Assembly: GCA_945881865.1 (NCBI GenBank)
Contig: CAMCVK010000004.1
Location: forward strand, 62,001 to 126,000
DNA length: 64,000 nt
Reading direction: 5' to 3'
Source: Fimbriimonas ginsengisoli Gsoil 348
GTDB lineage: Bacteria > Armatimonadota > Fimbriimonadia > Fimbriimonadales > Fimbriimonadaceae
Positions 44,381 through 50,097 of the stretch are shown one piece after another. Under the pieces are notes generated by a model, which did no database searches, was not told the origin of the DNA, and saw nothing but the letters and a program-made list of their open reading frames with translations. How positions within the stretch are numbered: the stretch's first letter is position 1; each line of letters begins with the position of its first letter. Position numbers and translations under genes: made by a program.

Positions 44381-45025
44381 ATGTTTGTAACCTTTGAAGG
44401 TCCGGAGGGCGGCGGCAAGTCCACCATGGTCCAGCGCGTCGCGGCCGCGATGTTGGCCGACGGGCATGAAGTGGTGACAACCCGCGAGCCAGGGGCGGGA
44501 GAAACCGGTCAGCGGATTCGTGAACTGCTGCTGCACGGGCCAGATATGCCGCCCGAAACCGAGTTACTTCTCTTTCTGGCGGACCGCGCAAACCACGTGC
44601 GCACCGTCATTCGGCCTGCGCTTGAAGCCGGCAAAATCGTCCTCTGCGATCGGTTCGCCGACAGCACGTGGGTGTACCAGGCCTACGTGCGCGAGCTCGA
44701 CCGAGCGTTCGTGGAGGCCGGAAACAGGTTTGCAACCGGCGGTCTCGAGCCGGACCTCACCATCCTGTTGGACGTGGAGCCGGAAATCGGGATGGCGCGA
44801 TTTACCAGCCGAGACCGCATCGAAGCGCAGCCGATCGAATTCCACAAGCGAATTCGGGAAGGGTTTATCCTGCGCACCGCCGATTCCTCTCGGTGGGTCA
44901 TCGTCGACGCGAGCCAGCCAGAAGATGCCGTCTTTGGGCGGGTCTGGCACGCGATTCACGAAAACCCGGCGTATAACTTGAAACGTCGCCCGGAGAACAG
45001 TTCCGGGCAGGGCACACCGAAATGA
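44381..45025 (+). CDS. tmk: thymidylate kinase
   Basis: 214 aa. P-loop FEGPEGGGKSTMVQ (residues 5-18), TTREPGAGETGQRIRELLL, DRFADSTWVYQ and the final kinase helices. It phosphorylates dTMP. Upstream in-frame codons to 44342 add residues without homology. The TGA overlaps the next ATG by 4 bp. Confidence 0.95.
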   Translation: MFVTFEGPEGGGKSTMVQRVAAAMLADGHEVVTTREPGAGETGQRIRELLLHGPDMPPETELLLFLADRANHVRTVIRPALEAGKIVLCDRFADSTWVYQAYVRELDRAFVEAGNRFATGGLEPDLTILLDVEPEIGMARFTSRDRIEAQPIEFHKRIREGFILRTADSSRWVIVDASQPEDAVFGRVWHAIHENPAYNLKRRPENSSGQGTPK

Positions 45026-45981
45026 TTTGGCAAGGTCTCGTTCTCGTCCTCTTCCCCGGTCCGGCGGATGCCGCCCTCTCGCTTCTCGCGAAGGCCGAGA
45101 CCTTCCGGACCCGAAAAGGGGCTTTCGCGGCCGACTTTGCCTTCCGCGCCGCTGATAAGGGCAAGCCGCTGTTGGGCAAGATTCGGCTTGGCGACGGTTA
45201 CCGCGCCTACATGCGCATCCAAGATCCCGCGCTGAACTATGAGCTGTTTTCAACCCGGGAGGGGGCGATGGAAATCGACCACGATGCGCGCATGTACGAC
45301 GAGGATCACGGCCCGGGGCGACGCCCATCCCGCCTCTCCGAATACTCGAGCATCGCCTTCCCCGGGTTCTACTTCGGCCGCAGCCTGCGATCGCAACTGC
45401 CGAAGGAGACCGTTTGGAATACGGATGGCCGCGCGGTTGTCGGTGGCGTTTCTGGAGACGTGGTGCACGGAAAATTCAAGGGCACCGATAGCGAGCTGGA
45501 TCTGAAAATTACGGTTGGACCGCGCGGCGAACTGCTCAACGTTCGGCGATACAGCCAAACCCCAATGGCGCGCTCCACGTACATTTGGACTTTTACCAAC
45601 TACCGAGATTTGCCCGAGAGCCCGAAGTGGTTCTCCGCGCCACTTCCCCAAGGATACAGTCCGTTCGAGCTTCCCGATACCGGCGACCCGATCCAGGTTG
45701 GCGACTCGCTGCGGGTTCCGGGCTCGAAGGCTACGTTGCTTCTCGTTGGGGACGGTACTCCCGCGAGCCTCGCGGCGCAGAAATGGTTTGACCGATTCTC
45801 TGCAAAGGAAACGAAGCGAGTTCTGAGCGCTACGGCTGCCTCCGACCGCGCTTTGATCAGCAAAATCCGACCACCCGCTTTCCCGTTCTTCGTACGGGTT
45901 TCGGCGGCCGGAAAGGTGACGAACCTCTGGATGGGTTTTGATGCATCCCGTGGAAAAGAGATTGCAGCGGCACTGAAGTAA
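45022..45981 (+). CDS. exported LolA-like protein with C-terminal thioredoxin-like part
   Basis: 319 aa, coupled to tmk by ATGA. A signal peptide (MIWQGLVLVLFPGPADA) precedes a LolA/LolB-like half: KAETFRTRKGAFAADFAFRA, LNYELFSTREGAMEIDH and MARSTYIWTFTNYRDLPE are the pattern of strands in lipoprotein carriers. The C-terminal ~120 residues (TLLLVGDGTPASLAAQKWF, FFVRVSAAGKVTNLW) look like a thioredoxin-like strand order without a CxxC. The role is unknown; lipoprotein sorting is one option. Confidence 0.6.
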   Translation: MIWQGLVLVLFPGPADAALSLLAKAETFRTRKGAFAADFAFRAADKGKPLLGKIRLGDGYRAYMRIQDPALNYELFSTREGAMEIDHDARMYDEDHGPGRRPSRLSEYSSIAFPGFYFGRSLRSQLPKETVWNTDGRAVVGGVSGDVVHGKFKGTDSELDLKITVGPRGELLNVRRYSQTPMARSTYIWTFTNYRDLPESPKWFSAPLPQGYSPFELPDTGDPIQVGDSLRVPGSKATLLLVGDGTPASLAAQKWFDRFSAKETKRVLSATAASDRALISKIRPPAFPFFVRVSAAGKVTNLWMGFDASRGKEIAAALK

Positions 45982-46087: not shown

Positions 46088-46810
46088 TTGTCAGCCGCAC
46101 CAAATTTGCCAAATCACGCCCGCCGACTTGCTCCCGCCGCCGCCGGCATTGGGGTTCTCCTCTCGGTCGCTGGCGTCGTCCTGCCGGGGGTCGGTCAGAC
46201 GCCGTTGCTTTTCACCGGACTGGCCCTGCTCGTCGCGGCAGGCACCATGTTTTTCACGCCGGATGAAGTCGCGCCCTTGCCGCAGCCGGAACCGACCGTC
46301 TTCCCCGACCTCAAGCCGCTAGAAAAACTGGTCGGCCGGATGAGCGTTGGTGTCTCGGCGACCCTAGAACAGATCGAGACCGAACGCGCCCAGATTGAGC
46401 AGCTTCGCGCTGCACTTCAGGGAACCCTCGAAGAGAGACGTCGCCTGGACGACTGGATGACGAAAACGAACGTCGAGACCGAACGCCTTCGCACCGAGGT
46501 GGCCACCTGGGAAAAGAGTGTGATAGATCACTTTGAGGCGATCGCCCGCGCGTTAAGCTTTCCGGGTCAGAGCGAGGAACGGTTACAGCGATTTGAGCGT
46601 GAGTTCAAAGACCTTTCGGCCGCCCTTGCGGCAACCGGATTTTCCGTCATCCGCCCCGAACCGGGCGACCGTGTGCAGGAGGGCTTGCACGTGGTGGTGA
46701 GCACGGAAAAGTCGGAACGGCCGGCTGGCGAAATCGTCGGGATCGAGCGTTGGGGTTTTCAGAATGGCGTCCGGATCATCCGGCCCGCCGAAGTTAAGGT
46801 AGGGGAATAG
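46088..46810 (+). CDS. membrane-anchored GrpE-like nucleotide exchange factor
   Basis: 240 aa from TTG 46088 (AGGGG 9 nt before). Order: two hydrophobic segments (about residues 14-33 and 39-57), a long coiled coil (~75-150: IEQLRAALQGTLEERRRLDD), and a GrpE-type beta domain (~178-240: LAATGFSVIRPEPGDRVQEG, then GIERWGFQNGVRIIRPAEVKV). GrpE is normally soluble; here a membrane anchor is added and the sequence is far from a housekeeping GrpE. It would eject ADP from the Hsp70 encoded 3 bp downstream. Confidence 0.78.
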   Translation: MSAAPNLPNHARRLAPAAAGIGVLLSVAGVVLPGVGQTPLLFTGLALLVAAGTMFFTPDEVAPLPQPEPTVFPDLKPLEKLVGRMSVGVSATLEQIETERAQIEQLRAALQGTLEERRRLDDWMTKTNVETERLRTEVATWEKSVIDHFEAIARALSFPGQSEERLQRFEREFKDLSAALAATGFSVIRPEPGDRVQEGLHVVVSTEKSERPAGEIVGIERWGFQNGVRIIRPAEVKVGE

Positions 46811-46812
46811 CA

Positions 46813-48543
46813 GTGGCAAAGTTTTCAATCGGCATGGACTTAGGGACGTCAACTTCCGAGGTTGCGGTCTACCGAAACGATCGGTATGAGGCATTGTTGG
46901 ACCCGCGGACGCAGTCGGCCATCGTGCCGAGCTTGGTCGCGGTGAGCGCGGCAGGCGAGTTGCTCGTCGGCCAGGAGGCCCTCAGCCGCGTGGACCAGCC
47001 CGGCTTTGGCGTTCGCGAAGTGAAGCGCCTCATGGGCACTGATGCGACCGTGAGCCTGCGCGGCGAAACCTATCGCCCCGAGGAAGTCTCCGCCCTCATC
47101 CTTCGAAAGCTGAAGCACGTGGCCGAAGTTTCGCTTGGCGAGTCGGTTTCCGACGTTGTCATTACCGTTCCGGCAAACTTTCCGGACCAGGCGAAAGCCG
47201 CCACCCACAACGCGGCCCAGATTGCCGGCCTTAACGCACTGCGCCTCATCAACGAACCCACCGCCGCCGCGATGGCGTTCGGAGTGAAGAACCTCGAGCG
47301 GGAAGAGCAGCTCGTTGTGTTCGACTTTGGTGGCGGAACCCTGGACGTAACCACGCTCGAGATGGTGTCCGGCATCATGGACGTGAAGAGCAGCTTTGGC
47401 GACACCAAGCTGGGCGGAAAGGACTTCGACGACCGCATGATCGACCTGATCCTGCGAAAGTTTCACGCCACCGGCGCGCGGACGGACCATCTAAGCGACG
47501 TCCGCCGCGAGCTGAAGGCGTTTGCCGAAAGTGCTAAGAAGGACCTATCCACCCGACGCGAAGCCGAAATCTCCGTTGCCCGGTTTGGCCAAAAGGGCGG
47601 CGAAATGGTGAACCTCGAGGTCCGCATCACCCGAGAGGAGTACGAAGACGAAATCGCATCGCTACTTGACCGCGCCCGCACGGTTTTGAAGACCGCGCTC
47701 CAGTCGGGCAAGCTGCGCCCGAGCAGCATCGGCCGCATCCTCCTCGTCGGCGGAACGACCTACATTCCGGCCGTCCGCGACCTGGTCTCAGAGGCGTTTG
47801 GCAAGCCGGGCTCGACCGAAATCCACCCGGATTTGGCGGTTGCCTACGGCGCGTCGGTTCAGGCGGCGATCATCCAGGACCTCATCTCCTCGGAGACCGG
47901 GCTCATCGTTGCCGATATCGCGCCGATCGGAATCGGGATCGACATCATGTCGGATGTCGGCGGCCAAAGAATGCTCATGTATGAGCCGCTGTTGATGCCG
48001 AATCAGAAGATTCCGGTGATGGTGGAGCGCGACTACTCGCTCATGAGCGCCGACCAGCGCGAGCTGGAAATCGAGATTCTGCAGGATCCGACCGGCAAAG
48101 CCAAGCTCGCGACCGACGCTGTGAAGACGGACATCATCGGCCGCATCACGGACATCCCGCCGAACCAGTCGGGTAACCCGCACCCACTTAAAGTGGCGTT
48201 CAGCTACGACCTCAACGGAATGATTCGTCTACGTGCATGGATTCCAGGGTTAGACAAATCGCTGGACATCGGCGTCGCTGCCACGGCAAGCCGAATGTCG
48301 GATGAACAAAAAGCGCAGGCATCGGATCGCATCGACGAGATCTGGAAGTCTAGCCCGTACTCCCGCCAGTTCGAATCGCTGATCCGCAAGGGCGAGCGTC
48401 TCGTTGGCGAGAAGGGAGACGAGGCAAAGCCGATCTCCGAGTCCCTCATCGAGCTCAAGAGCGCGCTTGCGGAGGGCAACGAATCGCGGATCGAGACGGC
48501 GGGCGGCATGCTGGCCGACGCGATCTTCGACCTTGAAGGCTGA
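46813..48543 (+). CDS. Hsp70 family chaperone, DnaK-like, short
   Basis: 576 aa (DnaK is about 640), GTG start. Nucleotide-binding signatures: GMDLGTSTSEVAVYRN, VPANFPDQAKAATHNAAQIAG, FDFGGGTLDVTTLEM and LVGGTTYIPAVRDLV. The substrate domain is divergent (MLMYEPLLMPNQKIPVMVER) and the helical lid is short, ending GGMLADAIFDLEG, without the usual C-terminal EEVD- or GG-rich tail. It is probably a specialised paralogue and not the cell's main DnaK. It sits between the GrpE-like and J-domain genes in one operon with 2-3 bp gaps. Confidence 0.93.
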   Translation: MAKFSIGMDLGTSTSEVAVYRNDRYEALLDPRTQSAIVPSLVAVSAAGELLVGQEALSRVDQPGFGVREVKRLMGTDATVSLRGETYRPEEVSALILRKLKHVAEVSLGESVSDVVITVPANFPDQAKAATHNAAQIAGLNALRLINEPTAAAMAFGVKNLEREEQLVVFDFGGGTLDVTTLEMVSGIMDVKSSFGDTKLGGKDFDDRMIDLILRKFHATGARTDHLSDVRRELKAFAESAKKDLSTRREAEISVARFGQKGGEMVNLEVRITREEYEDEIASLLDRARTVLKTALQSGKLRPSSIGRILLVGGTTYIPAVRDLVSEAFGKPGSTEIHPDLAVAYGASVQAAIIQDLISSETGLIVADIAPIGIGIDIMSDVGGQRMLMYEPLLMPNQKIPVMVERDYSLMSADQRELEIEILQDPTGKAKLATDAVKTDIIGRITDIPPNQSGNPHPLKVAFSYDLNGMIRLRAWIPGLDKSLDIGVAATASRMSDEQKAQASDRIDEIWKSSPYSRQFESLIRKGERLVGEKGDEAKPISESLIELKSALAEGNESRIETAGGMLADAIFDLEG

Positions 48544-48546
48544 ACC

Positions 48547-50097
48547 ATGGCGGCGTCACTTTATGAAATGCTTGGGGTGACTCCCGACGCAAGCCCGGCG
48601 GAGATCAAGCGTGCTTACTACAACCTGATTCGAAAGCATCCGCCCGAGAAAGAGCCTGAGCGATACCGGTTGATCAACGAAGCTTGGTCGGTGCTCAGCA
48701 ACGAAGAGTCTCGCCGAAGCTACGACGAGACGTCGCTATACGGCGACGAGGTAGAGGCATTGATGGACGCGGCCAGGAGGGCCGAGGAGGAGGAGAACTG
48801 GGCTACGGCGGTGCAAAAGCTGAAGATGGCGCTGGCACTTACGCCGACCGCCGACTACATCCTGAACCGTCTCGCGCTGGTCTATGCATACGATAACCGG
48901 TTCCCTGAGGCCGTGAAGAGCCTGGAAAAGCTCACCACCCGGGTTCCAACCGTGCCCGTCTATTGGAGCAATCTTGGCGAGATCTTCCTGCGGCAGGCGG
49001 ATTGGCAGAGCGAGAACGGGCAGGAGAAAGAGAAGACCCCGAGCCTCGAAAAAGGGCGGGCGGCGTTTGAAACCGCGTATCGGCTGGAACCCTACAACCA
49101 AAAGCATCTACTGGGCGTCTCTCGCTGCTACAAAGCAGAGAAGAACTACCCGCAAGCGATCGCCTATGCCAGACGGGCGATCACCGCTGACGGCGAGGTG
49201 GACTACAGCGACTTCGATACGCTGTTCGAGATCGCCTTCCTTCACGTGCTCACCGATGACTGGGACGGCCTCCAGAAGGTAGTCGGCGAAATCAATTCGG
49301 TCACGCCTAGCGACCCAGAGATTCGCGGCTACGTGGCCAGCCGATTCGCACGGCTTGCCAGCGAGCTCTTCGGGGCCGGGGGATACTCGGATGCGGCGCG
49401 AATCGGCATCCATGCGCTGACTTTCCAAGACGCTTCGGCGCGCGCCGAGCTGGAAAAGATGGTGACCTTCTACCGCTACGTGGCCGGGGCAAACGAGGAA
49501 ATGGGGGCTTTCTCGGGAGACCAGCGTCTGCCGGTGCCGCTCCGGTACTTCGCCTATCTGTCCTACATGAAGGCGGTTGATGAACCGCTCGAAGACCACG
49601 ATGACGAGTTTCAGGAAGCTTGGACGAACTTTCTTCGCGGAGACGGCGACCATCGCTTGGCGCTCCTGATCCTGCGGATGGAATACCCGCACCTGTACTG
49701 GCTCCAAGACAACGTGTACGACAAGTTGGCAGAGCAGCTAAAGCTAGACCTTCGGCAGGGACCAGACCCGATGGGCGATGGATTCCGACCACTGAACATG
49801 GCCGAGGATTCGGCCCCGCAAAGAACGATTACCAAGCCACCGGTTGCAAAGCCGCCGGTCGCAAGGCCGGTAACGGGACCAACGCTCCGCGAAAGCAGAG
49901 CAACCCTGCCGAATAATCTCACCCGCCCGCCGAACCAGGGGTTGGCTCTACCTTTCGCCGGCGGCGTCCTCGGCTTCTTCATGGGTGCAGTCTTCGCGAC
50001 TCCGTTGGGCGGGGCCGGCGTCGTCATTACGGGCATCATTGGCGCCTGGATCGGCGTCAGCCTCGGAAAGTGGCTACGCAGAATCGTCGGCGGCTAG
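48547..50097 (+). CDS. J-domain / TPR protein with HPP in place of HPD and a C-terminal membrane hairpin
   Basis: 516 aa. Residues 1-63 are a J-domain (YEMLGVTPDASPAEIKRAYY, INEAWSVLSNEESRRSYDE), but the HPD motif that stimulates Hsp70 ATPase is His31-Pro32-Pro33. Residues ~70-400 are TPR-like repeats. A proline-rich linker (KPPVAKPPVARPVTG) leads to two Gly-rich hydrophobic segments (~465-510: FAGGVLGFFMGAVF, VITGIIGAWIGVSLG) and a basic end. It is a substrate-binding TPR platform at the membrane. A J-domain without Asp could be a weak activator, or be of a known HPP-type subclass that I only partly recall. Confidence 0.85.
   Translation: MAASLYEMLGVTPDASPAEIKRAYYNLIRKHPPEKEPERYRLINEAWSVLSNEESRRSYDETSLYGDEVEALMDAARRAEEEENWATAVQKLKMALALTPTADYILNRLALVYAYDNRFPEAVKSLEKLTTRVPTVPVYWSNLGEIFLRQADWQSENGQEKEKTPSLEKGRAAFETAYRLEPYNQKHLLGVSRCYKAEKNYPQAIAYARRAITADGEVDYSDFDTLFEIAFLHVLTDDWDGLQKVVGEINSVTPSDPEIRGYVASRFARLASELFGAGGYSDAARIGIHALTFQDASARAELEKMVTFYRYVAGANEEMGAFSGDQRLPVPLRYFAYLSYMKAVDEPLEDHDDEFQEAWTNFLRGDGDHRLALLILRMEYPHLYWLQDNVYDKLAEQLKLDLRQGPDPMGDGFRPLNMAEDSAPQRTITKPPVAKPPVARPVTGPTLRESRATLPNNLTRPPNQGLALPFAGGVLGFFMGAVFATPLGGAGVVITGIIGAWIGVSLGKWLRRIVGG

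What the first reader, a model, noticed from the sequence alone, without database searches (positions are those of the whole stretch)
46088..50097. Three-gene chaperone module: membrane-anchored GrpE-like protein, short Hsp70 and a J-domain TPR protein with HPP instead of HPD
The sequence shows, in one operon with 2-3 bp gaps, a GrpE-like beta domain behind two hydrophobic segments and a coiled coil, a divergent Hsp70 with a short lid, and a J-domain/TPR protein whose HPD is HPP and whose C-terminus is a Gly-rich membrane hairpin. Established knowledge: HPD is needed for Hsp70 ATPase stimulation. Inference: this is a dedicated Hsp70 machine held at the inner membrane, perhaps for secretion or envelope protein quality control, with an altered activation step. 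A family of HPP-type J-domains may exist, so the single substitution alone is not proof of novelty; the membrane placement of both co-chaperones is the new part.
Basis: partly seen in the sequence, partly recalled or inferred. Interest (0 to 1): 0.75.

Follow-up and report, generated by a model that had tools for sequence, protein, structure and literature searches.

The report
Membrane-anchored private Hsp70 chaperone module
Next to its ordinary heat-shock chaperones this bacterium carries a second, three-gene chaperone machine whose two helper proteins both look anchored in the cell membrane; it resembles the little-studied E. coli HscC system but adds a membrane-embedded nucleotide-exchange factor of its own.

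Summary
The three genes, their order and the 2-3 bp gaps are real: GrpE-like 46088-46810, Hsp70 46813-48543, J-TPR 48547-50097. The genome has separate canonical DnaK, GrpE and DnaJ genes. The module recurs in ten genomes of the phylum, in five families, sporadically, with different flanking genes, and in none of 19 other genomes of the window's genus. All eight module GrpEs found full length carry strongly hydrophobic N-terminal segments; none of 23 other GrpEs checked does. Membrane placement is thus supported by conservation, not shown experimentally. The 'HPP instead of HPD' reading is off by one residue: gapless alignment through helix II makes KHPPE equal to KYHPD, so His33 is replaced by Pro, Pro34 is kept and Asp35 becomes Glu. 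His33 is also often lost in HscC-linked J-proteins (HRPD, TRPD, IRPD), and E. coli DjlB/DjlC have HPE. The Hsp70 has HscC's deletions but forms its own clade and keeps the GrpE-contact loop that HscC lacks. Best reading: an HscC/DjlC-like membrane Hsp70 machine with a dedicated membrane-embedded GrpE, predicted in three relatives to span the membrane with an extracytoplasmic domain. A new variant of a known kind; client unknown.

The parts
46088..46810 (+). GrpE-like nucleotide-exchange factor, 240 aa, TTG start, two N-terminal hydrophobic segments, coiled coil, GrpE beta domain
   Evidence: ORF; Pfam GrpE 1.7e-10; AGGGGA ribosome-site-like stretch before the TTG; predicted helices 15-31, 40-53, 76-156, 163-182 in a low-confidence model
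46127..46183 (+). hydrophobic segment 1 of the GrpE-like protein (residues 14-32)
   Evidence: Kyte-Doolittle mean 2.21
46199..46255 (+). hydrophobic segment 2 of the GrpE-like protein (residues 38-56)
   Evidence: Kyte-Doolittle mean 1.81; hydrophobic segments conserved in all module GrpEs
46364..46804 (+). GrpE domain (residues 93-239)
   Evidence: Pfam; aligned with E. coli GrpE it keeps the H, G, GY/GF, NG..R and A.V.V core
46813..48543 (+). Hsp70, 576 aa, HscC-like architecture with short lid
   Evidence: Pfam HSP70 6.9e-106; alignment and contact residues; tree
48547..50097 (+). J-domain/TPR protein, 516 aa
   Evidence: Pfam DnaJ 5.5e-15 and TPR
48559..48726 (+). J-domain (residues 5-60), short-loop DjlB/DjlC type
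   Evidence: Pfam; alignment; single-sequence model helices 5-9, 17-30, 37-76, whose best Foldseek matches are J-domains, E about 5e-3
48637..48648 (+). H31-P32-P33-E34, equivalent to DnaJ Y32-H33-P34-D35
   Evidence: gapless register; P33 invariant in A1
49942..50061 (+). C-terminal Gly-rich hydrophobic hairpin of the J-TPR protein (residues 466-505)
   Evidence: Kyte-Doolittle 1.94 and 1.75

Best explanation
A dedicated Hsp70 machine working on the cytoplasmic face of the inner membrane. The J-TPR protein, held in the membrane by its C-terminus, collects a client through its TPR array and presents it to the Hsp70. Its J-domain docks on the Hsp70 with the conserved Pro34 and the acidic residue at position 35 (Glu here) and triggers ATP hydrolysis. 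The GrpE-like protein, held by an N-terminal hairpin with its coiled coil and beta domain in the cytoplasm, ejects ADP, so client capture and release both occur at the membrane. Shown here: gene order, domains, conservation, co-inheritance, hydrophobic anchors, the J-domain register, and retention of Hsp70 residues that contact the J-domain and of the GrpE-contact loop. Inferred: pairing of the three proteins, topology, the ATPase effect, and the client class (cytosolic parts or assembly intermediates of membrane or envelope proteins).
For: Order GrpE-Hsp70-J-TPR on one contig in G000, G075, G082, G142, G143 and G147, and adjacent pairs cut by contig ends in G003, G074, G170 and G186. J-TPR and Hsp70 diverge together (Spearman 0.82 over 36 non-independent pairs). 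All 8 module GrpEs have hydrophobic segments at Kyte-Doolittle 1.6 or more; 0 of 23 other GrpEs do. The J-TPR ends in a hydrophobic anchor in G000, G003, G074, G082, G142 and G147 and in a CFI-box-CTERM domain in G143 and G170. Module Hsp70s keep R167, E171, D393 and P419 of DnaK; R167 and P419 receive J-domain D35 and P34 (PMC8215388). They also keep the AK..LS loop deleted in E. coli HscC, in line with having a GrpE of their own. Canonical DnaK, GrpE and DnaJ are elsewhere in the genome.
Against: No expression, localisation or ATPase data. Anchors rest on hydropathy only. His33, needed in every J-protein tested so far (PMC8215388), is replaced by Pro. Q378 of DnaK is S or A in five of nine relatives checked. 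Flanking genes give no common client.
Confidence: 0.6

Rival explanations
1. The J-domain is a pseudo-J ('type IV') domain that binds but does not stimulate the Hsp70, acting as a scaffold or brake as Pam16 does; another J-protein of the cell supplies the stimulation.
For: His33 is lost in all 12 module-type and f10 J-domains aligned; conservative changes at H33 abolish stimulation in all systems tested, and HPE is the only tolerated change named in a recent review (PMC13254874). The genome has other J-proteins with HPD.
Against: Pro34 is invariant and position 35 is E, D or Q, with R167 and P419 kept in the Hsp70. Operon-linked J-proteins of HscC also often lack His33 (R instead), so the loss is a family pattern rather than decay.
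Confidence: 0.2
2. The machine is an assembly chaperone for a type IV pilus or type II secretion apparatus.
For: In family f10 (G120, G121) a related Hsp70 and J-TPR sit in one gene run with a secretin and a T2SSE assembly ATPase, and in G128 two N-methylation (pilin-like) genes follow the J-TPR.
Against: The f10 Hsp70s lie on a long separate branch, no GrpE was seen beside them, and module loci proper show no pilus or secretion genes among the neighbours checked.
Confidence: 0.2
3. A second, general stress DnaK-DnaJ-GrpE set; the hydrophobic stretches are incidental.
For: All three roles are present in one operon.
Against: Hsp70 far below every curated DnaK or HscA cut-off (353.6 against 648 bits for DnaK); separate clade; hydrophobic anchors in 8 of 8 module GrpEs and 0 of 23 others.
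Confidence: 0.08
4. A transmembrane switch: an extracytoplasmic signal sensed by the membrane GrpE sets nucleotide exchange on the Hsp70, so the module is a signalling device more than a folding machine.
For: In G082, G142 and G147 the GrpE domain follows an N-terminal signal or anchor, about 230 probably extracytoplasmic residues and a transmembrane segment.
Against: The window protein and those of G143, G186 and G075 have no sizeable extracytoplasmic domain; where present the domain has no Pfam match.
Confidence: 0.1

Closest known systems
HscC with DjlB/DjlC (E. coli and other Proteobacteria)
   Same: Short-lid Hsp70 with the DnaK 76-101 deletion, helix-B deletion and loop L1,2 insertion; short-loop J-domain with x-P-[DE]-x-[DE]-P; membrane-anchored J-protein; private Hsp70-J pair.
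   Different: The module has its own GrpE, in the membrane, and its Hsp70 keeps the GrpE-contact loop; HscC is reported to lack the GrpE signature. The J-protein carries TPRs. The Hsp70s form separate clades (100/99 and 100/100). Position 33 is Pro, Ser or Thr, not His or Arg.
Canonical DnaK-DnaJ-GrpE
   Same: The same three roles and, in outline, the same contacts (R167, D393, P419, GrpE beta domain).
   Different: Soluble; DnaJ has HPD, G/F and zinc domains; DnaK has a full lid and tail; present separately in this genome.
Pam16/Pam18 membrane J pair at the mitochondrial import motor
   Same: Hsp70 machine held at a membrane, with an HPD-deviating J-domain (PMC13254874).
   Different: No import channel partner seen; a single J-protein with TPRs; bacterial. 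Resemblance in mode of work only, not tested as kinship.
Cyanobacterial plasmid cluster TPR - short J - GrpE - Hsp70 (Acaryochloris, L143)
   Same: Same set of roles in one cluster, J motif without HPD (EFPAHKQP).
   Different: GrpE without hydrophobic segment; TPR and J on separate genes; different order.

Membership tests
HscC (Hsp70) | Deletion of DnaK residues 76-101 and in helix B, insertion in L1,2 | tested here: met
   Alignment with E. coli DnaK and HscC (features from PMC8215388)
HscC (Hsp70) | GrpE signature absent, GrpE-independent | tested here: not met
   Module Hsp70s keep the AK..LS loop region missing from E. coli HscC and are encoded next to a GrpE
HscC (Hsp70) | Falls in the HscC clade | tested here: not met
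   Module and HscC are two separate, fully supported groups, both on the non-DnaK side of the unrooted tree
DnaK | Score above curated DnaK cut-off | tested here: not met
   353.6 bits against 648; 344.8 against 822.55
HscA | Score above curated HscA cut-off | tested here: not met
   299.6 against 620; 295.6 against 708.55
GrpE | Pfam GrpE domain over its curated cut-off | tested here: met
   41.3 bits against 25.8
GrpE | Nucleotide exchange on the partner Hsp70 | not testable with these tools
   Needs biochemistry
J-domain proteins | J-domain over Pfam cut-off | tested here: met
   55.7 bits against 27.8; J-domain structures are the best Foldseek matches, with weak E-values
J-domain proteins | HPD motif | tested here: not met
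   PPE in the correct register; H33P, P34 kept, D35E
DjlB/DjlC-type J-proteins | Short loop after the motif followed by [DE]P and F/Y, acidic residue at 35 | tested here: met
   Window HPPEKEPERY against DjlB FHPETDPQGF and Pantoea HRPESDPEGY, no gaps
DjlB/DjlC-type J-proteins | C-terminal membrane anchor | tested here: met
   Hydropathy only
DjlB/DjlC-type J-proteins | Stimulates only its own Hsp70 | not testable with these tools
   Needs ATPase assay

The most novel reading that the evidence does not exclude
A transmembrane GrpE: in part of this family the nucleotide-exchange factor is a receptor-like protein whose extracytoplasmic domain could control a cytosolic Hsp70 across the membrane, coupling envelope state to client release.
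Probability: 0.25. Interest if true: 0.8.

Novelty: new variant of a known kind. Interest (0 to 1): 0.55.

Why it matters
GrpE-type exchange factors are described as soluble: a 2025 review of them does not contain the words transmembrane or anchored (PMC12987570), and phrase searches for membrane-bound, membrane-anchored or transmembrane GrpE found no such protein in the library. A membrane-embedded, in some relatives probably membrane-spanning, GrpE would mean that the Hsp70 cycle can be confined to, or regulated from, the bacterial membrane. The family also gives natural J-domains without His33 beside their own Hsp70, which makes the question of what the HPD motif really requires directly testable.

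Tried and rejected
The genome-contig scan with the Hsp70 gave only 24-31% partial flavobacterial matches and was not used as evidence. A viral-contig scan found no relative. The plasmid collection holds no J-TPR relative beyond the J-domain. 296 genomes of the phylum of a flavobacterial genome gave no full-profile match, without a positive control. A search centred on E. coli was not possible. G277 and G190 were dropped from the J-TPR list: G277 is an ordinary HPD DnaJ (KYHPDVN), and G190 has a degenerate J with no Hsp70 beside it. Myxococcus SglK/GrpS was considered; the Hsp70 paper searched has no GrpE, DnaJ or TPR mention, and no sequence test was made. A von Willebrand-like reading of the extracytoplasmic domain was not supported by Pfam.
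Full report
Observation. The ORFs are at 46088-46810, 46813-48543 and 48547-50097 on the + strand, with gaps of 2 and 3 bp; the next gene, priA, is convergent. Pfam finds GrpE (41.3 bits, cut-off 25.8), HSP70 (355 bits) and DnaJ plus TPR. The GrpE-like protein starts with two hydrophobic stretches and the J-TPR protein ends with two.

Not the housekeeping set. The same genome carries a canonical Hsp70 on contig 7 (838 bits), a canonical GrpE on contig 10 (149.7 bits) and J-proteins with HPD on other contigs. The window Hsp70 is far below the curated cut-offs of DnaK and HscA.

Distribution. With the J-TPR protein as query, 16 of 291 genomes of the phylum match. After inspection nine carry the module type (G000, G003, G074, G075, G082, G142, G143, G147, G170), five of family f10 carry a related J-TPR (G120, G121, G128, G129, G130), and two (G190, G277) are not members. 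A tenth module, with membrane GrpE and Hsp70 up to the contig end, is in G186. Members lie in families f1, f2, f12, f15 and f19. None of the other 19 genomes of the window's genus has it. Flanking genes differ from locus to locus. This pattern fits a module that moves or is often lost; which of the two was not tested. J-TPR and Hsp70 identities correlate (Spearman 0.82, 36 non-independent pairs), as expected if they evolve together.

Membrane anchors. All eight module GrpEs with a full N-terminus have one to three stretches with a Kyte-Doolittle mean of 1.6 or more; none of 23 other GrpEs from the same phylum has one (one of the 23, L153, is cut at a contig end). Three of the eight (G082, G142, G147) have a signal-like or anchor segment, about 230 residues, a second segment and then the GrpE domain, so the middle part should lie outside the cytoplasm (inference). 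The J-TPR C-terminus is a hydrophobic anchor in six genomes and a CFI-box-CTERM domain in two; in f10 it is a short basic, possibly amphipathic tail. That different anchors serve the same two proteins is the best argument that the location matters. It remains a prediction from hydropathy.

The J motif. Aligned without a gap, window YEMLGVTPDASPAEIKRAYYNLIRKHPPEK runs against E. coli DnaJ [30 protein letters not shown], which puts H31 on Y32, P32 on H33, P33 on P34 and E34 on D35. G143 has YPPE, with the tyrosine still in place. Two other J-proteins of the window's genome have KHHPD, so an H at that position is ordinary. In 13 aligned relatives the second Pro is invariant and the first is not. 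The motif 4-mer scores 11.7 in this register and 5.5 in the other. The changes are therefore H33 to P (S, T or R in relatives) and D35 to E (D or Q in relatives).

What that means. D35 binds R167 and Q378 of DnaK, P34 touches P419, and H33 binds a backbone carbonyl of the linker (PMC8215388). R167, P419 and D393 are kept in all nine Hsp70s checked (seven module, two f10); Q378 is kept in four of the nine, the window's among them. His33 is often lost in HscC-linked J-proteins too: HRPD in Pseudomonas and Duffyella, HRPE in Pantoea, TRPD in Rahnella, IRPD in Rhizobium, against HPE in E. coli DjlB/DjlC. DjlC stimulates HscC (PMC8215388), so an acidic residue other than Asp at 35 is workable; no ATPase test of a natural J-domain lacking His33 was found in the passages read. 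The pseudo-J reading therefore stays open at 0.2.

Kinship. The Hsp70 shows HscC's deletions and insertion but not HscC's missing GrpE loop, and in the tree the module Hsp70s form one group (100/99) apart from HscC (100/100) and from DnaK (100/100); the tree is unrooted. It works like HscC-DjlC at the membrane, but it is not filed as HscC because two defining features fail. The chief difference is a private, membrane-embedded GrpE.

Function. No flank points to a client. The f10 cousins in a secretin and T2SSE gene run suggest envelope machines as one client class, kept as a rival at 0.2. The statement that the module handles membrane or envelope proteins is inference from anchoring.

Limits. 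No search across most other phyla was possible. Hydropathy is not localisation. Single-sequence models are weak.

Noticed in passing
L102:1392-2717, L118:7933-9399, L119:9239-10717: GrpE domain preceded by a signal-like segment, about 230 probably extracytoplasmic residues without Pfam match, and a transmembrane segment: a receptor-like GrpE.
   Followed up: partly
L121:6093-13827 and L125:161-9154: Related Hsp70 and J-TPR genes in one gene run with a secretin, a T2SSE-family assembly ATPase and a shared 437-aa gene that by eye is enolase, in family f10.
   Followed up: partly
L116:3051-4550 and L117:6391-7881: J-TPR proteins that end in a CFI-box-CTERM domain (NF041770, 63 and 71 bits) in place of a plain hydrophobic anchor.
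   Followed up: no
L143:1523-6666: Acaryochloris plasmid cluster of TPR protein, 98-aa J-protein with EFPAHKQP motif, soluble GrpE and Hsp70 (the Hsp70 reading frame looks broken in the part read).
   Followed up: no
L138, L140, L175-L180: HscC-linked J-proteins on proteobacterial plasmids often lack His33 of HPD (HRPD, TRPD, IRPD, IDPQ); Paracoccus and Variovorax lack the motif altogether.
   Followed up: partly
window 45022-45981: 319-aa protein with a signal-like N-terminus, no Pfam or NCBIfam match, same strand, 106 bp before the GrpE-like gene; not seen beside the module elsewhere.
   Followed up: no
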